DNA from: Bacteroidota bacterium
Lineage (GTDB): Bacteria; Bacteroidota; Bacteroidia; B-17B0; Aurantibacillaceae
NCBI GenBank assembly: GCA_030684395.1
Contig: JAUXTT010000017.1
Coordinates: 124,001 to 188,000, forward strand
DNA: 64,000 bases
Reading direction: 5' to 3'
Part shown: positions 25,801 through 48,857 of the stretch, piece after piece
Layout: every line of letters starts with the position of its first letter
Numbering within the stretch: the stretch's first letter is position 1
The notes under the pieces: generated by a model
The model's database searches: none
Told to the model about the DNA's origin: nothing
Seen by the model: only the letters and a program-made list of their open reading frames with translations
Program-made: the position numbers and the translations under genes

Positions 25801-26260
25801 GGCGTTTCAGGCATTTGCCAATGAAAATGGGAAAGAGATCATCTCAGCAATCGAAAAAACAGGTAAATACAGCTGGAATGGTTTAGATATGAATTCTGAG
25901 GATTTTGAGATCATCCCGGTTGATATTCCGGGCTGGAAAGTAGCCAATAATGGGCCTTTGACCGTTGCTTTGGACGTTACTCTGAACGAAGCACTGATTC
26001 ATGAAGGAATTGCCCGGGAACTGGTAAATCGTATCCAAAACATCAGAAAAGACAAGGGTTTTGAGGTTACCGACAAAATAAACATCAAAATACAGAGAAA
26101 TAATTCCTTAGATACTGCTATAAAAAGCAATTTAACTTATATTTGTACTGAAACTTTAACTGATAATTTAGAAGTTGTAGAATCAGTGGCTCAGGCAGAA
26201 GGAATTTTGGTTGAGGTTGACGAGAACACAAGTACCCTTATTTCAGTTCAAAAAAATTAA
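22805..26260 (+). CDS. ileS: Isoleucine--tRNA ligase
   Basis: This class I synthetase of 1151 residues has a HIGH-type motif (GIHHVMGR, about 56-63) and KMSKR (700-704), an editing domain (WTTTPWTLPSN), and a C-terminal anticodon-binding region. The start is set at ATG 22805 (MSKYPEYKQL). An in-frame ATG 45 bases upstream would add residues read from a CTCTGTG-type repeat and is not credible. The H1-like/DksA-like gene follows seven bases after the stop. It charges tRNA-Ile. Confidence 0.96.
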   Translation: MSKYPEYKQLNLPKISEDMLKFWEENKIFDKSVSSREGKEPWVFYEGPPSANGMPGIHHVMGRTIKDIFCRYKTLQGFQVKRKAGWDTHGLPIELGVEKTLGITKEDIGNKKSPKYISVEDYNKACRKEVMKYTDKWEDLTARMGYWVDMKSPYITYDNKYIESVWWLLQNLYNKDLLYKGFTIQPYSPAAGTGLSSHEINQPGCYRDVKDRTATVMFKVVDPSKLKINGLTGDVHVLAWTTTPWTLPSNTALAVGTSIEYVLVKTFNQYDGHEINVILAKERLAAYLNPKGLDAEFVFKAGDKVIPYKILAEFNGFDLEGLRYEQLLPFVKPDGDAFRVILGDFVTTSDGTGIVHIAPTFGADDMRVAREANIPLLLTKNADGNDVPLVDLQGKFVAEINDGIFLYGKEYVKEAYLTDTEKEIEFKHQKQVLEAAGKIKELKAYISVDERIVLKLQEEGKLFKKETYEHSYPHCWRTDKPVLYYPLDSWFIKSTAAKQRMIELNKTINWKPEATGTGRFGNWLENLNDWNLSRSRFWGIPIPIWTSEDRSEQIIIGSVEELKAQIDNAVAKKMMDANPLGEYKVGDMSDANYHTFDLHKPYADTIILEKNGKKLFREPDLIDVWFDSGAMPYAQVHYPFENKELIDNHKYFPADFIAEGVDQTRGWFFTLHAIAVMCFDSVAYKNVVSNGLVLDKNGNKMSKRLGNGIDPFDTLPKYGADATRWYMIANAAPWDNLKFDLDGITEVQRKLFGTLYNTYGFFSLYSNVDNFVVDHSNAVPMAERGELDKWIISKLNSLVKDVTNAFDEYEPHRAARFIEEFVDEHLSNWYIRLSRRRFWKGEMSTDKKAAYETLHECLTVVGQLMSPIAPFFAEWLHKNLTANDAKAEESVHLTLFKKADEKLIDKGLEERMDMAQRISSMVLSIRKKENLRVRQPLQRIQIPILNKEMQEKIDAVKELILSEVNVKSIEFVDESKTQIVKDLKLNFKTLGKTLGQQMKAFQAFANENGKEIISAIEKTGKYSWNGLDMNSEDFEIIPVDIPGWKVANNGPLTVALDVTLNEALIHEGIARELVNRIQNIRKDKGFEVTDKINIKIQRNNSLDTAIKSNLTYICTETLTDNLEVVESVAQAEGILVEVDENTSTLISVQKN

Positions 26261-26267
26261 TAGGATT

Positions 26268-27368
26268 ATGGCTAAGAATAAAAAATCAGCGAAACCTGTT
26301 GCGAAAAAAGCAGCAAAACCGGCAGCAAAAAAGTCTGCTAAACCTGCTCCAAAAAAAGCTGCTAAACCCGTAGCTAAGAAACCCGCAAAACCTAGTAAAC
26401 CGGCTCCTAAAAAAGTCGTTAAACCTGTTGCTAAAAAAACAGCAAAGCCTGCTCCTAAAAAAGTAGTTAAACCTGTTGCTAAAAAGGCAGCGAAACCTGT
26501 TGCAAAGAAAGCAGCGAAACCTGCTCCTAAAAAAGTAGTGAAAGTTGTTGCGAAAAAAGCAGTTAAACCTGTAAAGGTAGCTCCTGCTCCAAAAAAAGAA
26601 GTTAAAGCCGTTTCTAAAAAAGAAAAGGAAATCAAGAAACCAATAAGCAAAGTTGAAAAGAAAGAAGAGAAGAGTATGAAGAAGAAAGGTAAAGAGGAAG
26701 GTAAAAAAGCTAAACCTGTTGATGACGAATTGGAGGCTGATGGTTTGGATATGGGCGATGGCTTGTTGGAAGGTGGATTAGACGGGGAGGCAGTGATTGA
26801 AGAAGAAGAAGAAGATGATTTTGTGGATGTTGAACCTAAGAAAAAAGGCAGAAAACCAAAAGCAAAAGAAGGCAAGAAAAAATATGACTCTGAAGATTTC
26901 GTAAGAAAACAAGTAGTTAAAATTGACCTTAGCAAATCTTTGCTTAAGAAAACATTAACTGAGCAACCGAAACCATTTGTAAACACAAGTGATAATCGTT
27001 CTCGTTATACTGATAAAGAATTAGCTGAATTCCGTGAATTAATTTTAAAGAAATTAGAAGAAGCTCAGATTGATTATGATTTGCTGAAACAAACGTTATC
27101 GCATGCTGATGATCATGGAACAGACGATACTTCTCCAACATTCAAATTATTGGAAGATGGAAGTGATGTGTTGTCTAAAGAAGAAACGGCTCAATTGGCT
27201 CAGCGTCAGGAAAAATACATTGTATCGCTTAAAAACGCTTTAGTACGTATCGAAAACAAATCGTACGGAATTTGCCGCGCTACAGGTAAATTGATCCCTA
27301 AAGAACGTTTACGCAGTGTGCCTCATGCCACTTTAAGCATCGATGCTAAATTGAATCAATATTCGTAA
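26268..27368 (+). CDS. Histone H1-like Lys/Ala/Pro repeat domain fused to a DksA/TraR-like domain
   Basis: Start ATG 26268 is seven bases after the ileS stop; the longer frame from 26211 lies inside ileS. Residues about 1-125 are tandem KPAPKK / KPVAKK / AAKP units as in histone H1-like and bacterial Hc1-type proteins, followed by a Lys-rich linker, an acidic stretch (about 160-190) and a C-terminal domain (about 240-366) like DksA/TraR proteins (YGICRATGKLIPKERL, PHATLSI). The zinc-finger cysteines are reduced to one, as is common in Bacteroidota. DNA binding by the basic tail and RNA polymerase binding by the C-terminal domain are inferred. A rho-independent terminator follows. Confidence 0.85.
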   Translation: MAKNKKSAKPVAKKAAKPAAKKSAKPAPKKAAKPVAKKPAKPSKPAPKKVVKPVAKKTAKPAPKKVVKPVAKKAAKPVAKKAAKPAPKKVVKVVAKKAVKPVKVAPAPKKEVKAVSKKEKEIKKPISKVEKKEEKSMKKKGKEEGKKAKPVDDELEADGLDMGDGLLEGGLDGEAVIEEEEEDDFVDVEPKKKGRKPKAKEGKKKYDSEDFVRKQVVKIDLSKSLLKKTLTEQPKPFVNTSDNRSRYTDKELAEFRELILKKLEEAQIDYDLLKQTLSHADDHGTDDTSPTFKLLEDGSDVLSKEETAQLAQRQEKYIVSLKNALVRIENKSYGICRATGKLIPKERLRSVPHATLSIDAKLNQYS

Positions 27369-27430: not shown

Positions 27431-27470
27431 CGTTTTGTAGGGGAGGGTCGCGACCCTCCCCTACAAAACG
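27431..27470. repeat. Perfect 40-base palindrome (REP-like element)
   Basis: Two 20-base arms with no loop, each reading TTTTGTAGGGGAGGG and TCG from the outside in, centred on TCG/CGA. It follows the terminator directly and is followed by a partial copy (CCTGACCCTACAAAA at 27474-27488). It is GC-rich against an AT-rich background and resembles mobile REP/BIME-type palindromes; no transposase is nearby. Confidence 0.8.
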
Positions 27471-28232: not shown

Positions 28233-28286
28233 TTTACCCTTAAACAAAAATCTACAAACTTTGTTTTATTGAACACCTGAAGGTCT
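28233..28286 (-). pseudogene. Truncated second copy of the ftsY 3' end
   Basis: About 54 bases align with the last 17 codons of ftsY (28809-28862), reading DLQVFNKTKFVD and then a one-base deletion. Four of the six substitutions before the deletion are synonymous. It lies on the far side of a broken toxin-antitoxin pair, so the pair is bracketed by intact ftsY and this remnant. Confidence 0.8.
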
Positions 28287-28559
28287 AATCGTAAATATCT
28301 TTCCTGTGGCCCAAAGTTATAACATCAACTATCAGTTTTGAGTCAATGATCTCATAAATTACGCGGTAATCTCCAATTCTGATTCGATACCCTTCACGTC
28401 CCTTTAGTTTTTTGCATCCAGTTGGCGTGGGTTTTGTTCCAAACCGCCTATGGCTTTAAGTATTGGGTTTGCAACCGTATCCGAAAGTTTATCTAATTGC
28501 TTTTGAGCCTCTTTAGACAATAAGATGCTATACTTAGGCTTTTTTCCTTTTTCTTTTCT
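28285..28559 (-). pseudogene. RelE/ParE-type toxin, frameshifted
   Basis: The minus strand reads KKPKYSILLSKEAQKQLDKL, then AIGGLEQNPR, then after a one-base deletion GREGYRIRIGDYRVIYEI and VDVITLGHRKDIYD. This is the typical RelE/ParE fold pattern (IGDYRVIYEI, LGHRKDIY). A base is missing near 28420, so the two parts are in different frames. No start codon is clear. The stop TAG at 28285-28287 is shared with the edge of the ftsY remnant. The gene is almost certainly inactive unless the frameshift is a sequencing error. Confidence 0.8.
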
Positions 28560-28737
28560 TCAGGTAATCAGAAAACAAAACGCGTTCACTACCATCATCA
28601 TTTTTCTTAGCAGCATCATACAGTCGAATATCCTCAAACTCTTCCAATTCTTCCATAATGGATTTTGAATTCCTTCATCGGAAGAACCACCATTTTTTTC
28701 CGACAGTATCAGTAATGTATTGTGGATGTAAGGTCAT
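28534..28737 (-). pseudogene. Antitoxin partner of the RelE-type toxin, frameshifted
   Basis: From ATG 28737 the frame reads MTLHPQYITD and then stops early. Continuing in shifted frames gives MVVLPMKEFK, then IMEELEEFEDIRLYDAAK, then ERVLFSDYLKKR, typical of the small antitoxins paired with RelE toxins in Bacteroidota. At least two frameshifts are needed, one in a run of seven A. The stop (28534) overlaps the toxin region, as expected of a coupled pair. Confidence 0.75.
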
Positions 28738-28808: not shown

Positions 28809-29762
28809 TTACCCCTTAAACAAACTATCTACAAACTCGGTTCTATTGAACACTTGCAGATCTTCGAGTTTTTCTCCTACGCCAATGTAGCGAACAGGAA
28901 TTTTGAATTGGTCTGAGATACCAATAACAACGCCACCTTTGGCAGTGCCGTCTAATTTTGTTAATGCAAGTGCAGTTACTTCAGTAGCTGCGGTAAACTG
29001 TTTACATTGTTCAATTGCATTTTGCCCGGTAGATGCATCGAGTACTAATAATACTTCGTGTGGTGCATCCGGAACAACTTTCTTCATTACCATTTTTATT
29101 TTGGTAAGCTCGTTCATCAAATTTACTTTGTTGTGCAAACGACCGGCTGTATCAATGATCACCACATCCGAACCACGCGAAACTGCCGAGCTTAATGTGT
29201 CAAACGCAACAGAAGCAGGATCTGCACCCATGCCTTGCGAAATAATCGGAACACCAACACGTTCACTCCAGATGGTTAACTGATCAACAGCTGCAGCACG
29301 AAAGGTATCTGCTGCACCCAATATTACATTTTTACCTCTTTGTTTAAATGCATACGAAAGTTTCCCGATGGTAGTAGTTTTACCAACACCGTTAACTCCA
29401 ACAACCATTATCACATACGGTTTTTTATTTTCAGGAACTACAAAATCAATTTCATCCGTACTGTTATTTTCAGTAAGTAATGAAGCGATCTCTTCTTTTA
29501 AGATTCCGTTTAATTGAGCAGTACCAACGTACTTATCTTTTGAAACACGATCTTCAATACGTTTGATGATCTTAATTGTAGTTTCAACGCCTACATCTGA
29601 TGAGATGAGAATTTCTTCGAGGTTATCCAGTACTTCCGCATCAACTTCACTTTTTCCAACAACAGCCTTGGCAAGCTTAGAAAAAAAACCTTCTTTTGTT
29701 TTTTCTAAACCTTTATCTAAGGACTCTTTTTTGTCTTTACTGAAGAAACTGAAAATTCCCAT
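28809..29762 (-). CDS. ftsY: Signal recognition particle receptor FtsY
   Basis: This 317-residue SRP GTPase has GVNGVGKTT (P-loop, 122-130), DTFRAAAVDQL, DTAGRLHNK (G3) and TKLDGTAKGG (G4). The N-terminal A domain is very short, as usual in Bacteroidota. It docks SRP-ribosome complexes at the membrane. It lies downstream of the L33 and DUF4295 genes in the same orientation. Its 3' end is duplicated in part 520 bases downstream. Confidence 0.96.
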   Translation of the reverse strand: MGIFSFFSKDKKESLDKGLEKTKEGFFSKLAKAVVGKSEVDAEVLDNLEEILISSDVGVETTIKIIKRIEDRVSKDKYVGTAQLNGILKEEIASLLTENNSTDEIDFVVPENKKPYVIMVVGVNGVGKTTTIGKLSYAFKQRGKNVILGAADTFRAAAVDQLTIWSERVGVPIISQGMGADPASVAFDTLSSAVSRGSDVVIIDTAGRLHNKVNLMNELTKIKMVMKKVVPDAPHEVLLVLDASTGQNAIEQCKQFTAATEVTALALTKLDGTAKGGVVIGISDQFKIPVRYIGVGEKLEDLQVFNRTEFVDSLFKG

Positions 29763-35230: not shown

Positions 35231-35266
35231 AAAAGAGCCGTCGCGAGTACTCGCGACGGCTCTTTT
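35231..35266. terminator. Perfect 36-base palindrome, bidirectional terminator
   Basis: AAAAGAGCCGTCGCGAGT and its exact complement form a loopless palindrome with A/T tracts outside, 28 bases after mce and 19 bases before the stop of the convergent subtilase gene. It can end transcription from both sides. Confidence 0.93.
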
Positions 35267-40945: not shown

Positions 40946-42361
40946 ATGCAACAATACAACATATACTGCGGAGGAGAATTCATTCAAAGTGCAAATACAC
41001 TTGAAATAAGAAACCCCTTTGATAATTCTATTGTAGCCTCTGTTTTTTTAGCAGACGAAAAAATTCTTGATACTGCCATTGAAAAAGCACTGATAGTTAG
41101 AGAAGAATTAAAAGTACTTCCATCTTATACACGTTACGAAGTTCTTTTATACATTTCAAACAAACTAAAAAGTAATCGTAAACATCACGCAGAGATCCTT
41201 TCTTTGGAAAGCGGAAAACCTATGCGTTATGCACTATCAGAGATCGATCGTTCGGTTCAAACTTTTTTAATTGCCGCAGAAGAAAGTAAACGAATTGCAA
41301 AAGAATATATATCACTCGACTGGACAGCTGCCGGAAAAGACAAAGAAGGTTTGGTAAAATATTTTCCGATTGGATTAGTTGCAGGAATTGCCCCATTTAA
41401 TTTTCCTTTGAATTTAGCTGTACATAAATTAGCTCCTGCCATTGCAACAGGCTGTCCTATCATTTTAAAACCTGCAAGTGCAACACCGTTATCAACTTTA
41501 GAGTTAGCAAAGATCATTGATGAAACCGAATTACCAAAAGGTGCTGTTTCTATTTTACCTATGAACAGAACAACAGGTAATTTAATGGTAACCGATGAGC
41601 GTTTTCAATTATTGAGTTTCACTGGATCACCCGTTGTGGGCTGGGAAATGAAAAAACACTGTGGTAAAAAGAAAATAGTATTGGAGTTGGGAGGTAATGC
41701 AGGCGTGATTATTTCTTCTATTCAAGATCTGCAGGATGTTGTAAAAAAATCAATAACAGGAGCTTTTGCTTACAGCGGACAAATTTGTATTCATGCTCAA
41801 CGTTTTATTGTGAAAGATGATAGTTATGATGTATTTATGAATGAATTCACCAAACAAACCAGAACACTACAAAATGGAGATCCTTTAGATGAAGCTACCG
41901 ATATAAGCAGTATGATAGATGAAGAAAATGCTATCCGCGTTGAACAATGGATCGCTGAAGCCATTCAACAAGGAGCTACACTTTTATGCGGGGGAAAAAG
42001 AAACGGAACTTTTGTGGAGCCGACCATTCTAACCAATTGCAACAATAGCATGAAAGTTTATGCAGAAGAAGTTTTTGGCCCGGTGGTTTGTATAGAAAAA
42101 TACAGCGGCAACATTTCCGAAGCAGTGAAAAAAATAAACGATACCAAATTCGGTTTACAATGCGGAGTTTTTACCGATTCACTTGCAGAACTCGACTATT
42201 GTTTTAATCACATTGAAGTTGGAGGAGTAATTCATAATAATGTTCCAACGGTGCGTTTCGATCACATGCCTTATGGTGGAATTAAAGAAAGTGGTTTAGG
42301 CAGAGAAGGGGTAAGATACGCGATGATGGATATGCTGGAGGCTAAGGTGCTGGTGAAGTAA
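40946..42361 (+). CDS. NAD(P)-dependent aldehyde dehydrogenase
   Basis: This 471-residue enzyme has the ALDH fold signatures IAPFNFPLNLA, SFTGSPVVG (cofactor binding), LELGGNAG (Glu general base) and SGQICIHAQR with catalytic Cys281. The C-terminal MPYGGIKESGLGREG is normal for the family. Substrate not predictable (lactaldehyde or semialdehyde type are possible). The last 14 codons plus stop are repeated at 43781-43826 beyond an ATPase gene. Confidence 0.92.
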   Translation: MQQYNIYCGGEFIQSANTLEIRNPFDNSIVASVFLADEKILDTAIEKALIVREELKVLPSYTRYEVLLYISNKLKSNRKHHAEILSLESGKPMRYALSEIDRSVQTFLIAAEESKRIAKEYISLDWTAAGKDKEGLVKYFPIGLVAGIAPFNFPLNLAVHKLAPAIATGCPIILKPASATPLSTLELAKIIDETELPKGAVSILPMNRTTGNLMVTDERFQLLSFTGSPVVGWEMKKHCGKKKIVLELGGNAGVIISSIQDLQDVVKKSITGAFAYSGQICIHAQRFIVKDDSYDVFMNEFTKQTRTLQNGDPLDEATDISSMIDEENAIRVEQWIAEAIQQGATLLCGGKRNGTFVEPTILTNCNNSMKVYAEEVFGPVVCIEKYSGNISEAVKKINDTKFGLQCGVFTDSLAELDYCFNHIEVGGVIHNNVPTVRFDHMPYGGIKESGLGREGVRYAMMDMLEAKVLVK

Positions 42362-42363
42362 GC

Positions 42364-42420
42364 TTTTCAACACAAACATGAAGAGGCAATGGATCCGCTA
42401 TCAGGATCACAGAGTAGATT
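42364..42420. repeat. Degenerate CTCTGTG-type repeat after ALDH
   Basis: TTTTCAACACA (42364-42374) matches the left arm of the copy at 19457, and ATCACAGAG follows at 42406-42414; a small GGATCCGCTATCAGGATC dyad lies between. The remaining bases to 42554 are AT-rich without recognised signals. Confidence 0.4.
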
Positions 42421-42554
42421 TTTATGGAAAAGTAATAATAGAATAATGAAAATTTAAACTGTTTGCTTTTTTATTCAGATTGAATTTCGGCTATATGCTA
42501 TAATTAACTGAATTACAGAAACATAATAACTATTTTTTTCAAATTTATTCAAAA

Positions 42555-42653
42555 TCACCAATTATATCATATTTTTAGATATTAAAATCACCAAATATAT
42601 ATAATTTTTATATAATTAAGTCTCCAATTATACTATATTTTTAGCTATTTGTT
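42555..42653 (+). repeat. Three direct repeats of 33 bases in the ATPase promoter
   Basis: TCaCCA starts at 42555, 42588 and 42621, exactly 33 bases apart (three helical turns), each followed by ATTATA-like and ATATTTTTA sequence. The array ends two bases before the -7 box. This looks like an operator array for a repressor or for the ATPase itself (inference). Confidence 0.7.
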
Positions 42654-42654
42654 G

Positions 42655-42662
42655 TATCTTTG
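42655..42662 (+). promoter_or_regulatory. -7 element of the DUF4143 ATPase gene
   Basis: TATCTTTG fits TAnnTTTG and ends nine bases before the ATG, so the leader is only a few bases long. Confidence 0.6.
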
Positions 42663-42671
42663 TAGGTAATT

Positions 42672-43790
42672 ATGATCGAAAGAGCTATACAACAGCGTAT
42701 TGAAAGTAAATTCTTTAAGGGCAAAGCCATTATATTACTTGGTCCGAGGCAGGTTGGGAAAACTACTCTGATTCAAAGCATTTTGAAAAACAAACCTCAT
42801 TTGTTTTTAGACGGTGATGATGCAAGCATAAGAATTTTATTGAGCGAACCAGATACGTTTAGTCTTAAACAATTAATTGGAAAACACACAATAGTTTTTA
42901 TTGATGAAGCACAAAGAATTCCCGGAATAGGGATCACATTAAAATTAATTACGGATCAAATTAAACAAGTACAGCTTTTTGTAAGTGGTTCATCTGCATT
43001 GGAAATAAATGATAAAACACAGGAATCCCTAACAGGTAGAAAATGGGAATACAATTTATATCCGATCAGTTGGGAAGAATTGGAACAAAGCATTGGTTTT
43101 TTTGCAGCAGAGCAACAATTAGAACACCGCTTGGTTTATGGAATGTACCCTGATGTAATTAATCATATTGAAGATGAGCACCAGGTATTACAACAACTAG
43201 CCAATAGCTATTTATATAAAGACATACTTACCTTAACCGGAATTAAAAAACCGGAAATGTTAGAGCGCTTACTTCAAGCCCTGGCTCTGCAATTGGGGAG
43301 TGAGGTTTCCTATAATGAACTGGCTAATTTATTAGGCATAGATAAGCTAACCGTGATGCGTTACATTAATGTATTGGAAAAATCATTTATTGTTTTTCAA
43401 CTCAATAGTTTTAGCAGAAACCAACGCAACGAAATAAAAAACAATCGCAAAATCTATTTCTATGACAATGGCATTCGAAATATGATCATTAATAATCTTA
43501 ACCCTTTGGATTTGAGAAGCGACAAAGGCGCGCTTTGGGAAAATTTCTTAATATCAGAACGAATAAAAAAACAAGCCTACCATCAGGAATATATAAACCA
43601 TTACTTCTGGCGAACAGTCCAAAAGCAGGAAATTGATTTTGTGGAAGAAGCGAACGGAGCTATAAATGCATTTGAATTTAAATGGAAAAGTGGCGGGCGC
43701 AAAAAAATACCCAATTCCTTTTTAGAAACATATTCCGCTACAGGGAAAATAATTGATAGAGGAAATTTCAGAGAGTTTGTTATGCAATGA
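42672..43790 (+). CDS. AAA-type ATPase with DUF4143 domain
   Basis: This 372-residue protein has a P-loop (GPRQVGKTT, about 25-33), a Walker B region (HTIVFIDEAQRIP), SGSSALE as sensor, and a C-terminal DUF4143 domain (about 190-345) containing a DUF4143-type YFWRTVQKQEIDFVEE nuclease-like block. Such proteins are scattered accessory genes in Bacteroidota; their function is unknown, with links to toxin-like and defence loci proposed. The stop TGA falls inside a second copy of the ALDH 3' end, out of frame with it. It has its own promoter with an operator-like array. Confidence 0.9.
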   Translation: MIERAIQQRIESKFFKGKAIILLGPRQVGKTTLIQSILKNKPHLFLDGDDASIRILLSEPDTFSLKQLIGKHTIVFIDEAQRIPGIGITLKLITDQIKQVQLFVSGSSALEINDKTQESLTGRKWEYNLYPISWEELEQSIGFFAAEQQLEHRLVYGMYPDVINHIEDEHQVLQQLANSYLYKDILTLTGIKKPEMLERLLQALALQLGSEVSYNELANLLGIDKLTVMRYINVLEKSFIVFQLNSFSRNQRNEIKNNRKIYFYDNGIRNMIINNLNPLDLRSDKGALWENFLISERIKKQAYHQEYINHYFWRTVQKQEIDFVEEANGAINAFEFKWKSGGRKKIPNSFLETYSATGKIIDRGNFREFVMQ

Positions 43791-43826
43791 TGGATATGTT
43801 GGAGGCGAGAGTTTTAGTTAAATAAG
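43781..43826 (+). pseudogene. Truncated second copy of the ALDH 3' end
   Basis: Forty-six bases match the end of the aldehyde dehydrogenase gene (42317-42362) at 35 positions and encode YAMMDMLEARVLVK and a stop; the original has Lys in place of Arg. All other differences are synonymous. It overlaps the last codons of the ATPase gene. Confidence 0.9.
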
Positions 43827-43844
43827 AAAAGCGTAACAATATCT

Positions 43845-44735
43845 ATGACAAAACCAATCGAATGCCCGGTATGTGAATGGCCGCCAGACGGTGAAGAGCA
43901 TTGGCAGTGCACATGTGGACACGCATGGAATACTTTTGATACAAAAGGAAAATGCCCGAGTTGTAATTTTCAGTGGGAAGAAACCTACTGTCCGGCTTGT
44001 GGGCAAACATCTCCACATAACGATTGGTATTCAGGTGCAATGAAACCTGGAACCGATGACGGTCCTGAAACTATTCACTTAAAAATCAAAAAGAAAAAAC
44101 TAGAAGCTCGACTCATATCTTTAGGGATAAAAAATTATAGAATCGGTCACTTACCTTACTTAGATCATACCAAAGAAGAATTTCAAAATCCGTATGATGT
44201 GGGTTGCAGATTGGTAATTTTATCTGCCATTTCATACTCCGTGCATAAATTAGAGAATAGGCTTAAAATAATTCATTGGCTTAAAATAGAAGAATTATGG
44301 GATAAAGTATCAGAAAAAGAAAAAGAATTTTTCACAGATCAACAGCCAACCGAAGAAACCAGAATTGCTTTATCATGGAGATTAGAATCGGCACTAGTAT
44401 TGGGCTGGGCATTAGACCTTATTGATAATATACACTCAATTGACAATGAAGGAACTGATGATGAAATAAATACTTTCATGAATTATGTTCCTGAACTTGG
44501 GGAATCCACAAAAGAATTTCTCAGCAATGTGAGTTATAGAAGCCTAGAAGAAATTTATGAAGAAAACTTATTGAATGAAATGGCGACAACCTATTTCAGA
44601 GATCTGTTATTTAATGGCAAAGAAGATGAAACACAAATTAACAGAGCGGTAAGTTTCGAAAGGCATTATTCGCTTAACTGGGTAAGAAAATTTTCAGGCA
44701 TTAGTGAATGGGACGAGACTGATACATCGACCTAA
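43845..44735 (+). CDS. DUF4272 protein with N-terminal zinc ribbons
   Basis: This 296-residue protein starts with Cys pairs (CPVC at 8-11, CTCG, CPSC, CPAC within the first about 55 residues), probably two zinc ribbons. The rest fits DUF4272 (RLVILSAISYSVHKLE, WLKIEELWDKVSEKE, LSWRLESALVLGWALDLI, RHYSLNWV). Function unknown. Before the neighbouring insertions it would have followed ALDH directly and faced dnaE; both neighbours now carry an inserted cassette. Confidence 0.8.
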   Translation: MTKPIECPVCEWPPDGEEHWQCTCGHAWNTFDTKGKCPSCNFQWEETYCPACGQTSPHNDWYSGAMKPGTDDGPETIHLKIKKKKLEARLISLGIKNYRIGHLPYLDHTKEEFQNPYDVGCRLVILSAISYSVHKLENRLKIIHWLKIEELWDKVSEKEKEFFTDQQPTEETRIALSWRLESALVLGWALDLIDNIHSIDNEGTDDEINTFMNYVPELGESTKEFLSNVSYRSLEEIYEENLLNEMATTYFRDLLFNGKEDETQINRAVSFERHYSLNWVRKFSGISEWDETDTST

Positions 44736-44761
44736 ACAATAAACTCATGCGGAAATTTTCG

Positions 44762-44916
44762 AATCAAACCTCCCTATCCACAACAGCCAATCTCTTCATG
44801 TGTTCTACCTCAACTAGTTGTAAATCCTATTCGGTTGCCACTTTTTCAGTAAACGTATAACAACCGGGATCAATAAAAGGAAATTACCTTACGCAAGGCA
44901 GAAAATGAAAGTTCTA
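44762..44916 (-). pseudogene. Truncated second copy of the dnaE 3' end
   Basis: About 150 bases align without indels to codons 936-983 of the dnaE gene (45906-46049 region), including an identical block of 28 bases at the end. Two codons have become stops (Gln to TAA, Tyr to TAG). The last 11 residues (MKRLAVVDREV) are unchanged. It directly follows the Fic gene, whose TAG stop (44914-44916) is formed by the first bases of the remnant. Confidence 0.93.
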
Positions 44917-45741
44917 AAAAAGCAAAGAAGATCCTAAACCTAAATTTGGTGGAGTTTTATTGATCTTTAATTTTTTATCCAGTTCCATTATTTCAGTGAG
45001 TTGCTGCTTTACTTCCGTTGATATTACATTTATCAAAGGCAATAAGGATTTTTCTTTATGGCTTCGCAACAAACCTTCGTTAAAGTGGTATCCCTCTGCC
45101 TTAAACGAAATAAGTGGCAATCCTTCTAACAATAAACTATAGGCAACAGATAATCTTGCTGTGCGTTTATTACCATCAGGAAAAGGTTGATTAAGCCAAA
45201 CCTGATAAGCCAAGTAAGCACTACGCTCCAACACATCAGAAATATTCTCCATTTCATTGAATACTTTCTTCATGTTTTCTTCCACAGTTACTGTATTCGA
45301 AACCGGCTCAATTATTCCTTCTTCCCCGCCCAAAATATACTTAATACTATTATTGATAATCTTATACGCTCCGAGTTCCTGTTTATTTTGTTTCCATGAA
45401 GAATAATATTCGTCAAACTTCCAAAGTGCGGAAAGCAGGTTTTCATTAAAGGATTTTAGAGTTTTATCAGTTAAGGGATACTTATTTCTCGCCATAAAAA
45501 TACAGGTATCTACTGCCTTAATATGCCCCTTTACTTCTAAAACATCTTTAAATCTAGCTTCAGAAGAAAAATTTAGTTTGTCATTGATGATACTGTACGT
45601 GTCGACCAATTGAAGCCTGTTGCCTTCCAGTTTGTTTGAGTTATAAATAAACTCTGCCTTCTTATCATCCCACCATTGGTCTGGCAAAGCGATACTCGCC
45701 TTTTTAAACTCGTTAACTATTTTATCAAACTCTTGATTCAT
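44914..45741 (-). CDS. Fic-domain protein with Gln at the catalytic His position
   Basis: This 275-residue Fic protein has an N-terminal helix with the inhibitory motif S35-NKL-E39-G40 and the core motif QPFPDGNKRTAR (185-196). The usual first residue of that motif is the catalytic His (HxFxDGN[G/K]R); here the codon is CAA for Gln185. Fic enzymes attach AMP to target proteins. This copy is probably catalytically impaired, or works differently. It is inserted between dnaE and a remnant of the dnaE 3' end. A -7 element TATATTTG (45755-45748, minus strand) ends six bases before the ATG. Confidence 0.9.
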   Translation of the reverse strand: MNQEFDKIVNEFKKASIALPDQWWDDKKAEFIYNSNKLEGNRLQLVDTYSIINDKLNFSSEARFKDVLEVKGHIKAVDTCIFMARNKYPLTDKTLKSFNENLLSALWKFDEYYSSWKQNKQELGAYKIINNSIKYILGGEEGIIEPVSNTVTVEENMKKVFNEMENISDVLERSAYLAYQVWLNQPFPDGNKRTARLSVAYSLLLEGLPLISFKAEGYHFNEGLLRSHKEKSLLPLINVISTEVKQQLTEIMELDKKLKINKTPPNLGLGSSLLF

Positions 45742-45747
45742 CTACTA

Positions 45748-45755
45748 CAAATATA
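45748..45755 (-). promoter_or_regulatory. -7 element of the Fic gene
   Basis: On the minus strand TATATTTG ends six bases before the start codon, which implies an almost leaderless transcript, as for the DUF4143 ATPase. Confidence 0.5.
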
Positions 45756-45905
45756 TTACTATTTTTTCTGTATTCTCTCTCAATTTTTTTCATTCTCCGC
45801 TATGAGTTTTTTCTTCCAATTATTTAAAAGTGAAAAATGATCGTTGAAAATTTTGGTCTGCTCTCTTTTTAAATTTTCTATTTTACTCGATCAATTTTCA
45901 ATTAA

Positions 45906-48857
45906 TCAAACCTCCCTATCCACAACAGCCAGTCTCTTCATACTTTCCACCTCAACAGTAGTAAAATCATATTCAGTAACTACTTTTCCTGTGAGTATAT
46001 AACAGCCAGGGCCAATAAACGGATATTGCCTTGCTGAAGGAGGAAAATGAACGGTGTCTATCCATCTCCCTTCAAGATCAATAAAAGTCCCAAAACACAT
46101 GCGGTCACCTTTGCCTGTTTGGGTGTTTTTTACATTAACCAGGTAACCAACAATGGTAATGGTTTGATTGCTGTGCCGGATCAGTTCTCTTGCTGTAAGG
46201 GTCGCCGGGATTTTATCGCGCAGTAATTCGAAAGGTGAGCACAAAGAGAATCCTAGCAATTCCATTTCATCAAAGGCTTCATCAAGTTTGTTGGTTGTTA
46301 AAACAGGCAACTTCCATTCTTTATGTGTTACTTCAAATAATTCGTTTTTAGATTCTTTTCTTTTTATGGGTGAAATGAGCGTATGAATTTCCCATAATAA
46401 TTCCTTTTTGTTTTTTCCGGTGAAACCGAATCCTCCTATTCTCACAAGGATCCGCATTTGTTCTATAGAAATGGGAACCCGCTTAATGAAATCTTTTGTG
46501 TCTTTAAACTTTCCATTCCGGTTTCTTTCCTCAATAACCAAGTAAACAGTTTCACGCTCCAGTTCATTGAGCATCGAAAGTCCAAGGTAAATTGTTTTAT
46601 CTTTTATCACACATAAGGCTTCACTGGTGTTTATACAAGGCGCTTCTATTTTTGCACCATTCATGCGTGCTTCGTGTATGTATAATTCTGTACGATAAAA
46701 ACCTCCGCCATTGTTGAGTGTGGCAGTCATGTATTCTAAAGGAAAATATGCTTTTAAATATAAAGCCTGGTAACTCTCCACTGCATAACTTGCCGAATGT
46801 CCTTTTGAAAAAGCGAAATTGGCAAAGCTTTCTATTTGATTCCAAATCCCTTCAATAAAATTTTTATCATGCCCTTTCTTCTCACAATTATCAAAAAAAT
46901 TCGTTCGCACTTTAAAGAATTCGTTCCGCTGTTTAAATTTCCATGACATGCCTCTTCTTAGATAATCAGCTTCGGCTAATGAAAGCCCTGCAAAAAAGTG
47001 TGCGACCTTAATTACATCTTCCTGATACACCATTACACCATAAGTTTCGTGCAACAGATCATAAAACTCAGGCAGCTGAGCTCTCGCTTTTTCCCTTAAT
47101 TCATTATTTCTGAAACGAACAATGTATTCGCGCATCATTCCGCTTTTAGAAACTCCCGGACGAATGATAGAACTCGCAGCAACCAGACGCAAGTAATCAT
47201 CCGCTTTTAATTTTGCCAATAACATTCGCATGGCAGGTGATTCCACATAAAAACAGCCAATGGTATTCCCGACGCGCAAAAGATCTTTTACTTTTTTATC
47301 TTCCTTAAATTGCCCTACCTGATGAATATCTATTTCAACTCCTCTATTTTCTTTAATCAATGCGAGCGAATCTTTTATCTTTCCTAAACCACGCTGGCTT
47401 AAAATATCGAACTTATACAAGCCAATATCCTCTGCTTCGAGCATACTGAATTGAGTTGTTGGATAACCTTTCGGAGGCATGTTAGTAGCACAATAGGTTG
47501 TAATAGGTTCTTGTGAAATTAAAATTCCACTTGCATGAATACTTACGTGACGCGGAAATCCTTTTATCAATTCACTATATCTCAACACTTGTTTTCCTAA
47601 CTCATCGATATCAGGATATTTATGCGGAGATTGCAGTTTATCAATTTCTCCCGGCGGTAAACCGAATACTTTACCGAGCTCGCGTACAACCGCATCATTC
47701 TGAAAAGTATTATATGCTCCAACCAATGCCGCTTTGCCATCTTTGCCGAATCTTTCAAAAATATAACGGGTGATATCATCCCTATCCGTCCACGAAAAAT
47801 CAATATCAAAATCGGGTGGATTGGCACGATGCGGATTAATAAAACGTTCAAAATACAGATCAAGTTCTATGGGATCAACATCTGTAATACGCAAGAGGTA
47901 AGCAAGAATACTATTGGAACCACTGCCCCGCCCTACATAATAATAATCTCTACTTTGTGCGTATTTTATAATATCCCAGTTGATAAGAAAGTATGAAGCA
48001 AAATTCATTTGTTCAATAATTTGCAATTCCTTTTCTATACGTTGCAATACTTCATCTCTTGGCTTGTTTCCATAACGATATTCAATTCCTTTTTCACATT
48101 CACTTCTCAACAAAGCCATGTCTTCCGCTAATGATGTAGTATAAAATTTCAGGTTTTTGTTGGCAAACTTTCCGTATTCGAAATGTATAGAGCAATTGCT
48201 TATAATTTTTTCGGTGTTTTTAATTATATGCGGATAAGATGAAAACGCCTCTTGCAGCTCTTTTTTACTGATCAATATTTCATTTAAAGTTGCTTGCTTA
48301 TCAGGAGGAAGCATGCTCAGTAATACATTTTCATCAATAGCACGAAGTAAGCGATGCGCATTGTGATGGCGTTTGTTTAAAAAACTTACCGATTGAAGGG
48401 TTACAAATTTCTGTTCGGAATATTTTGAAGATAAAAATTGATAAGTAGCGATGTCCTTTATGGAAACCCCTATGAATTCATTTTCACGTAATGCCCACCC
48501 TTTGTATGATGAAAAAGGATAAATGATATATGCGTTCTCGAATTCAGGGGCACTGGTTTCAAAAGCAATTTCATTATGCAAATGCTTTGTAAGGTGTTCG
48601 TTTAGCTCTTTAAAGCCATCATTATTTTTTGCAATCCCTACATACTGCTGTTGTACTCCGTTTCTAAAATCAATTCCAATAACAGGTCGAATTCCTTGCT
48701 CTGAGCATCGCCTGATTGTTTCCAAACATGCAGAAGTATTATTTATGTCACTTAAAACAAATTCAGTATAACCATTGCTTTTTACTTCACTCAACAATTC
48801 ATCTATCGAAAGTGTTCCGTAGCAAAAACTGTAATATGTATGGCAGTTAAGAAGCAT
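45906..48857 (-). CDS. dnaE2: DNA polymerase III alpha subunit, short DnaE2-like form
   Basis: This 983-residue C-family polymerase is much shorter than the replicative DnaE of Bacteroidota. The PHP domain at the N-terminus is degenerate (NCHTYYSFCYGT in place of HxHS, SDINNT in place of TDHGN). The palm Asp residues are in PDFDIDFSW (Asp349-Asp353), and finger and helix-hairpin-helix regions follow. The C-terminus has a short OB-fold (TITIVGYLVNVKNTQTGKG). Length and PHP loss fit the damage-tolerance polymerase (DnaE2/ImuC). The usual partners ImuA and ImuB are not adjacent. The 3' end is duplicated in part beyond the Fic gene. Confidence 0.88.
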   Translation of the reverse strand: MLLNCHTYYSFCYGTLSIDELLSEVKSNGYTEFVLSDINNTSACLETIRRCSEQGIRPVIGIDFRNGVQQQYVGIAKNNDGFKELNEHLTKHLHNEIAFETSAPEFENAYIIYPFSSYKGWALRENEFIGVSIKDIATYQFLSSKYSEQKFVTLQSVSFLNKRHHNAHRLLRAIDENVLLSMLPPDKQATLNEILISKKELQEAFSSYPHIIKNTEKIISNCSIHFEYGKFANKNLKFYTTSLAEDMALLRSECEKGIEYRYGNKPRDEVLQRIEKELQIIEQMNFASYFLINWDIIKYAQSRDYYYVGRGSGSNSILAYLLRITDVDPIELDLYFERFINPHRANPPDFDIDFSWTDRDDITRYIFERFGKDGKAALVGAYNTFQNDAVVRELGKVFGLPPGEIDKLQSPHKYPDIDELGKQVLRYSELIKGFPRHVSIHASGILISQEPITTYCATNMPPKGYPTTQFSMLEAEDIGLYKFDILSQRGLGKIKDSLALIKENRGVEIDIHQVGQFKEDKKVKDLLRVGNTIGCFYVESPAMRMLLAKLKADDYLRLVAASSIIRPGVSKSGMMREYIVRFRNNELREKARAQLPEFYDLLHETYGVMVYQEDVIKVAHFFAGLSLAEADYLRRGMSWKFKQRNEFFKVRTNFFDNCEKKGHDKNFIEGIWNQIESFANFAFSKGHSASYAVESYQALYLKAYFPLEYMTATLNNGGGFYRTELYIHEARMNGAKIEAPCINTSEALCVIKDKTIYLGLSMLNELERETVYLVIEERNRNGKFKDTKDFIKRVPISIEQMRILVRIGGFGFTGKNKKELLWEIHTLISPIKRKESKNELFEVTHKEWKLPVLTTNKLDEAFDEMELLGFSLCSPFELLRDKIPATLTARELIRHSNQTITIVGYLVNVKNTQTGKGDRMCFGTFIDLEGRWIDTVHFPPSARQYPFIGPGCYILTGKVVTEYDFTTVEVESMKRLAVVDREV

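What the first reader, a model, noticed from the sequence alone, without database searches (positions are those of the whole stretch)
44762..46059. Fic cassette bracketed by intact dnaE and a decayed copy of its 3' end
44762-44916 aligns to the last about 48 codons of dnaE at constant offset (1142 bases) with no indels, two in-frame stops and an identical final 28 bases. The Fic TAG stop is formed by the first bases of the remnant. The architecture (intact core gene, accessory gene in the same orientation, truncated copy of the core 3' end) is the same as in the ALDH and ftsY cases.
Basis: seen in the sequence. Interest (0 to 1): 0.85.

Follow-up and report, generated by a model that had tools for sequence, protein, structure and literature searches.

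The report
Guest genes that displace core-gene tails
In this Bacteroidota genome small accessory genes (mostly toxin-like) sit just after the stop codon of core genes and are followed by a short second copy of that gene's tail, and the silent differences between the two copies suggest each insertion brought in a relative's version of the tail, so these footprints record foreign genes entering beside core genes without visible mobility enzymes.

Summary
Window 44762-44916 matches the dnaE 3' end at 116/155 bases, with two in-frame stops and an identical last 28 bases; the best match elsewhere in the window is 64/155. dnaE is a DnaE2-like polymerase. The Fic stop is not made by the remnant: a 62% Fic ortholog ends at the same residue. 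This is one case of a recurrent pattern. A scan of 1.6 Mb of this genome gave eight: ftsY, ALDH, dnaE2, atpG, a helicase gene, mutS, pyrB, rnhA. In each, a same-strand partial copy of the gene's 3' end lies downstream of an accessory unit, and homology ends within 4 nt of the stop codon. Guests are RelE/ParE and PIN toxin modules, two Fic, AAA/DUF4143, Bro-N and one secreted protein. Differences between copies concentrate at third codon positions (63/95; mutS 6/6, rnhA 23/29), so much of the divergence arose while both were functional orthologs. A sister MAG shows the pattern independently at dnaE2 with different guests. Best explanation: DNA of a related lineage (core-gene tail plus guest) integrated by one-sided homologous plus illegitimate recombination, displacing one tail. 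It resembles 'insertion with long target duplication' and Rhs/T6SS tail displacement, extended to housekeeping genes. The stop-codon-sharp boundary is not fully explained.

The parts
45906..48857 (-). Intact dnaE2-like gene (983 aa): PHP, DNA_pol3_alpha, finger and HHH_6 domains; host ('core') gene of the insertion
   Evidence: a separate replicative-type DnaE of about 1490 aa is at G000:C29
45904..46053 (-). Intact copy of the duplicated dnaE 3' tail (last 48-49 codons plus 2 nt after the stop)
45742..45905 (-). Unique segment between dnaE stop and Fic start; 45822-45919 recurs (86%) at G000:C42:8490-8587
44914..45741 (-). Guest gene: Fic/DOC-family protein, 275 aa, motif 184-195 NQPFPDGNKRTA with Gln in place of the motif His; native stop
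44762..44911 (-). Displaced, decayed copy of the dnaE 3' tail: 114/150 identical, 2 in-frame stops, 16 non-synonymous and 8 synonymous changed codons, last 28 bases identical
43845..44735 (+). Neighbour beyond the remnant: DUF4272 protein, convergent; found in 2 of 60 relatives searched plus own genome counted, so itself accessory
40946..42361 (+). Second case, core gene: aldehyde dehydrogenase
42672..43790 (+). Second case, guest: AAA_14/DUF4143 ATPase; its last codons ATG CAA TGA lie inside the ALDH remnant
43781..43826 (+). Second case, remnant of the ALDH 3' end, 35/46 identical, 8 of 11 differences at third codon positions
28809..29762 (-). Third case, core gene: ftsY
28299..28668 (-). 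Third case, guest: degraded toxin-antitoxin-like pair (RelE-like fragment 28299-28540, short antitoxin-like ORF 28534-28656); assignment by eye, no Pfam hit for the 40-aa ORF
   Evidence: inference
28237..28286 (-). Third case, remnant of the ftsY 3' end, 43/51 identical with a 1-bp deletion

Best explanation
The locus is the footprint of an integrase-free insertion. DNA of a related lineage carrying the 3' part of dnaE2, its downstream spacer and the Fic gene paired with the resident dnaE2; one end was exchanged by homologous recombination inside dnaE2, and the other end, just past the Fic gene, was joined illegitimately into the resident dnaE2 about 150 bp before its stop. dnaE2 stayed complete and one tail was displaced downstream of the guest, where it decayed. 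The same happened at seven or more other core genes of this genome, mostly with toxin-like or addictive guests that would be retained once they had entered. Shown: the architecture, its recurrence, the stop-codon boundary, and the third-codon-position signature. Inferred: one-sided homologous recombination with illegitimate joining, uptake by transformation (ComEC and DprA are present, Ku is not), retention of guests by addiction, and which of the two copies is the resident one.
For: Eight same-strand downstream 3'-tail copies in 1.6 Mb of the genome (1260 ORFs); apart from tandem paralogs or repeats and the reciprocal hit of the rnhA remnant, none lie upstream and none are inverted with homology ending at the stop. 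Homology ends -4 to +2 nt from the stop in seven cases by BLAST, and at +1 for ALDH by eye. Third codon positions hold 63 of 95 differences (mutS 6/6, rnhA 23/29, ALDH 8/11); binomial P 5e-11 against 1/3, and 2e-4 against 0.48, my estimate for decay after an exact duplication; for mutS plus rnhA alone 29/35, P 2e-5 against 0.48. Inactivating lesions in older remnants (two stops in dnaE, 1-bp deletions in ftsY and pyrB, lost stop in atpG) argue against assembly chimeras. A sister MAG contig (L242) has the pattern at its own dnaE2: 63 bp 100% identical, then a divergent last six codons, as expected if the exchange point lies inside the tail; the guest block is different. The same contig shows it at an XRE-type regulator gene, 148 bp 97%. 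G027 has one frameshifted case and G038 a partial atpG copy 0.6 kb downstream of atpG. ComEC and DprA above cut-off, no Ku.
Against: No donor or empty-site genome close enough was found; for rnhA, G001 is about equally far from both copies (71% and 69%), so neither is shown to be the import. Loss of homology exactly at the stop, even where the coding copies are 91-98% identical (atpG, helicase, mutS), is sharper than ordinary divergence of orthologous spacers would give. The right junctions lie close to the guest gene's end, whereas random illegitimate joins should often carry pieces of a donor's next gene. No clear microhomology at the right junctions. In dnaE itself only 18 of 36 differences are at third positions, and most amino acid changes in the remnant are unique to it, so that case alone cannot tell decay from imported divergence.
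Confidence: 0.55

Rival explanations
1. [quoted passage not shown] the copies then diverge, the intact one under selection, and its silent changes accumulate or are imported by later recombination with other alleles.
For: Same anatomy and size range as the roughly 100-bp variable target duplications described for restriction-modification systems (PMC3874152; PMC1643837); guests are of the same selfish or addictive kind. A sharp end at the stop would follow if something set the duplication boundary there.
Against: With no import of alleles the remnant should show many replacement and frame changes by the time silent sites differ; mutS (6 silent, 0 replacement) and rnhA (19 silent, 6 replacement codons) do not. 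No known reason for duplications to end at stop codons.
Confidence: 0.2
2. Campbell-type integration of a small circle carrying core-gene tail plus guest (homologous recombination alone), the model proposed for displaced Rhs tips; the repeat pair would allow excision and re-entry.
For: Direct repeats flank every guest; matches the circular-intermediate model for rhs C-terminal displacement (PMC2935791). Gives the third-position signature equally well.
Against: No circle, replicon or recombinase seen; L242 dnaE2 has 63 bp of perfect identity followed by divergence, which fits a displaced resident tail better than a single crossover between two divergent copies.
Confidence: 0.15
3. Assembly chimera: contigs of guest-bearing and guest-free strains of the metagenome were joined at core-gene ends.
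For: Would give silent-only differences and homology ending at the stop; the named relatives that show the pattern are MAGs.
Against: At least four of eight remnants carry lesions that a functional strain copy could not have (dnaE, ftsY, pyrB, atpG); remnants occur inside a 666-kb contig of a 98.9% complete, 0.66% contaminated assembly.
Confidence: 0.07
4. Remains of integrase elements that used gene 3' ends as attachment sites and restored the tail (as known for element e14 and phage 21 in icd), later reduced to one gene.
For: Tail restoration with silent differences and a displaced native tail is the known outcome for such elements (own knowledge).
Against: Eight different target genes would need eight specificities, no integrase was recognised in any cassette, and all cassettes would have to be trimmed to one functional unit.
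Confidence: 0.03

Closest known systems
Insertion with long target duplication of restriction-modification genes (Nobusato et al. 2000; Furuta et al. 2010; read through PMC3874152 and PMC1643837)
   Same: Short accessory, addictive gene unit flanked by direct repeats on the order of 100 bp, no recombinase of its own
   Different: Here the repeats are tails of protein-coding core genes ending at the stop codon, guests are toxin modules, Fic, AAA/DUF4143 and Bro-N, and the copies differ mainly by silent changes, which points to orthologous tails rather than exact duplications. I could not read the original papers (not held) and do not know whether their repeats show the same codon bias.
Rhs C-terminal displacement (Jackson et al. 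2009, PMC2935791)
   Same: New 3' end arrives by homology in the conserved part, and the old 3' end with a piece of core survives downstream as a fragment
   Different: In Rhs the tail itself is the variable cargo; here the tail is conserved and only carries a separate guest gene next to it
Sequential displacement of T6SS effector genes (Kirchberger et al. 2017, PMC5361080)
   Different: Effector and immunity loci only; not housekeeping genes
Element e14 or phage 21 in icd (own knowledge)
   Same: Intact gene carries an element-supplied 3' end with silent differences, displaced native end on the far side
   Different: Site-specific integrase and a whole prophage; none here

Membership tests
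Insertion with long target duplication | Insert flanked by direct repeats of tens to a few hundred bp | tested here: met
   Repeats of 43-252 bp, 75-98% identical, in 8 cases
Insertion with long target duplication | Repeats arise by duplication of one target sequence | tested here: inconclusive
   63/95 differences at third codon positions argues for two orthologous sources; later allele import not excluded
Insertion with long target duplication | Empty site with one copy in a related strain | not testable with these tools
   One genome per species; dnaE2 context not conserved in any of 19 relatives
Homology-facilitated illegitimate recombination | One homologous anchor | tested here: met
   Core-gene 3' tail continuous with the intact gene in all cases
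Homology-facilitated illegitimate recombination | Other end joined at a few bases of microhomology | tested here: inconclusive
   Right junctions show no clear shared bases beyond chance, but old junctions are eroded
Homology-facilitated illegitimate recombination | Uptake route (competence genes) | tested here: met
   ComEC 206 bits and DprA 248 bits, both above cut-off; presence is not proof of competence
Rhs/T6SS C-terminal displacement | Displaced tail encodes a toxin or immunity tip | tested here: not met
   Displaced tails are ends of dnaE2, atpG, mutS, rnhA and the like
Integrase element using a gene 3' end as attachment site | Integrase gene in the inserted segment | tested here: not met
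   Inserts hold one functional unit each, and none of the guest ORFs scanned matched an integrase family
Fic/DOC family (guest) | Fic domain | tested here: met
   PF02661, E 7e-10
Fic/DOC family (guest) | Catalytic His of the HPFx(D/E)GNxxR motif | tested here: not met
   QPFPDGNKR at residue 185; the G027 ortholog also reads QPFPDGNKR

The most novel reading that the evidence does not exclude
A general integrase-free mobility route in Bacteroidota: small addictive gene units travel attached to the last 50-250 bp of a core gene, using that tail as a homology handle, and enter precisely at stop codons while restoring the host gene; the displaced tails are dateable scars of each event. The stop-codon-sharp boundary and the trimming to one guest unit would then reflect a process that acts at gene boundaries, not just chance recombination.
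Probability: 0.2. Interest if true: 0.85.

Novelty: new variant of a known kind. Interest (0 to 1): 0.6.

Why it matters
How lone toxin-antitoxin, Fic and similar genes without recombinases enter chromosomes is poorly understood. The displaced tails give a searchable scar (core gene, guest, truncated tail ending at the stop) that records target, direction, age and source lineage of each entry. If general, it makes the contribution of one-sided recombination to accessory gene gain countable from single genomes, and it shows how core genes serve as safe harbours because the incoming DNA restores their ends.

Tried and rejected
Synteny of dnaE2 with Fic or DUF4272 in relatives: none. Recombination breakpoint in dnaE by sliding nearest relative: no clear switch. 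Which rnhA copy is resident: not resolved, G001 71% and 69%. Microhomology at right junctions: nothing clear. Orthologous empty site of ftsY: lspA is not next to ftsY in any of 19 relatives. Native neighbour of atpG: OmpH-like genes not found in the 1.5 kb next to atpG in 19 relatives. Source of Fic: only weak hits in plasmids and phages and none in viral contigs. Apparent cases dismissed as tandem paralogs or repeats: C31:240415, C16:313637, C19:571 and 1063, C42:58181, G001 C16:24650/28506, L277 and L288. Trend of higher identity toward the stop: seen in dnaE and rnhA, not in the others.
Full report
What is there. On the minus strand, a DnaE2-like polymerase gene (45906-48857, 983 aa) is followed by a 164-bp spacer, a 275-aa Fic-family gene (44914-45741) and then 44762-44911, a truncated copy of the dnaE 3' tail. 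Over 155 bp the copies share 116 bases without a gap, the last 28 are identical and the remnant has two in-frame stops. Nothing else in the window comes near this (best 64/155). In the ALDH case, by contrast, the last codons of the AAA/DUF4143 guest do lie in the remnant.

It is a recurrent pattern. I compared the last 180 bases of every ORF of at least 90 aa with the surrounding kilobases on both sides and both strands, in 1.6 Mb (1260 ORFs) of the genome. Eight genes have a same-strand partial copy of their own 3' end downstream of an accessory unit: ftsY, ALDH, dnaE2, atpG (contig C31:333092-333976), a helicase gene (C31:445748-447394), mutS (C31:530612-533248), pyrB (C41:15696-16622) and rnhA (C42:81309-81767). 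In every case homology stops at the stop codon: -4 to +2 nt by BLAST for seven, and at +1 for ALDH, where BLAST stopped earlier but the similarity continues by eye. Comparable hits upstream belong to tandem paralogs, repeats or the reciprocal hit of the rnhA remnant, and no inverted hit ends at a stop. Guests are a degraded RelE-like pair (ftsY; by eye), AAA_14/DUF4143 (ALDH), Fic (dnaE2), Bro-N (atpG), a 671-aa predicted secreted protein (helicase), a ParE/RelE toxin with a RelB-like ORF (mutS), a PIN-domain protein with a small partner ORF (pyrB) and a second Fic (rnhA). Orientation is not fixed: the guests at mutS, pyrB, rnhA and the helicase gene run opposite to the core gene.

Relatives. 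In 80 named Bacteroidota loci around dnaE2 (1.5 Mb, 1149 ORFs) I accept one clear case at other genes by DNA, an XRE-type regulator in L242 (148 bp, 97%), plus a dnaE2 case in the same contig found by tblastn: the tail of L242's own dnaE2 recurs 3.2 kb downstream, 63 bp perfectly identical and then a divergent last six codons, with a different guest block between (metallo-hydrolase-like, TetR-like and XRE-type ORFs). G027 shows a frameshifted 34-bp case and G038 a partial atpG copy downstream of atpG. G001 gave none in 0.4 Mb. The window genome thus looks enriched (8 of 1260 against 1 of 1449, Fisher P 0.015), but this comparison is rough, since ORF sets differ, it counts ALDH, which misses the E-value cut, and it leaves out the tblastn-only case.

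Two orthologs, not one duplicated piece. Differences between intact and displaced tails fall mainly on third codon positions: 63 of 95 overall, 6/6 in mutS, 23/29 in rnhA, 8/11 in ALDH, 18/36 in dnaE. A free remnant should change evenly; with silent change in the intact copy added I expect at most about 0.48. The pooled figure exceeds both (P 5e-11 and 2e-4), and mutS plus rnhA alone give P 2e-5 against 0.48. So the two tails had already diverged as working genes in different lineages, or the intact copy later received another allele. The dnaE remnant itself is old: 16 of its 24 changed codons are non-synonymous and most of these residues occur in no relative. Lesions in dnaE, ftsY, pyrB and atpG remnants argue against strain chimeras in the assembly.

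Mechanism. I favour homology-facilitated illegitimate recombination: an incoming fragment is anchored in the core gene, and its other end is joined to the resident gene before its stop. The L242 dnaE2 case fits this best, because both copies are identical up to a point and then differ, as if the exchange point lay inside the tail. ComEC and DprA are present and Ku is absent, compatible with transformation but not proof. Guests that are addictive would be kept. Open points: no donor or empty site is held; rnhA comparisons with G001 do not say which copy is resident; microhomology is not evident; and the sharp boundary at the stop, together with right-hand junctions close to the guest's own end, is neater than chance recombination predicts. 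In G009 and G015, whose atpG tails are nearly identical, the spacer after the stop is nearly identical too, so at 91-98% tail identity some spacer similarity would be expected.

Known relatives of the idea. Long target duplications of restriction-modification genes (PMC3874152, PMC1643837), displaced Rhs tips (PMC2935791) and displaced T6SS effector tails explained by the same recombination (PMC5361080) are the closest. What I have not found described is the use of housekeeping-gene tails, the stop-codon boundary, and the codon-position evidence; my literature search was limited to open papers, and the two key papers on restriction-modification insertions were not available.

Noticed in passing
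window 44914-45741, residue 185; G027 L111:12822-13649: This Fic protein has Gln where the Fic motif has its catalytic His (NQPFPDGNKRTAR); the 62% ortholog has Gln too, so the subfamily probably lacks canonical AMP transfer.
   Followed up: partly
window 45822-45919 and G000:C42:8490-8587 (L002:1501-1598): A 98-bp stretch spanning the dnaE stop and the spacer before Fic recurs at 86% downstream of rplT near a histidine-kinase gene; a dispersed intergenic repeat, or a trace of where the spacer came from.
   Followed up: partly
G000:C38:814-3741: A second complete dnaE2 paralog (58% identical) in the same genome, besides the replicative-type DnaE at C29.
   Followed up: no
window 43845-44735: DUF4272 protein with a zinc-ribbon-like N-terminus (several CxxC pairs) sits between the ALDH remnant and the dnaE remnant and is very rare among 60 relatives, so the whole 42362-45905 stretch is accessory.
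   Followed up: partly
L242:12944-16250: Guest block behind dnaE2 in the sister MAG holds metallo-hydrolase-like, TetR-like and XRE-type (possibly Panacea-type antitoxin) ORFs with a broken small ORF, different from the window's Fic.
   Followed up: partly
window 26279-26621: Tandem repeat region of about 75-130-bp units at the 5' part of the ORF at 26211-27368 (Lys/Ala/Pro-rich repeat protein).
   Followed up: no
window 27431-27470 and 35231-35266: Perfect palindromes of 40 and 36 bp in intergenic DNA.
   Followed up: no
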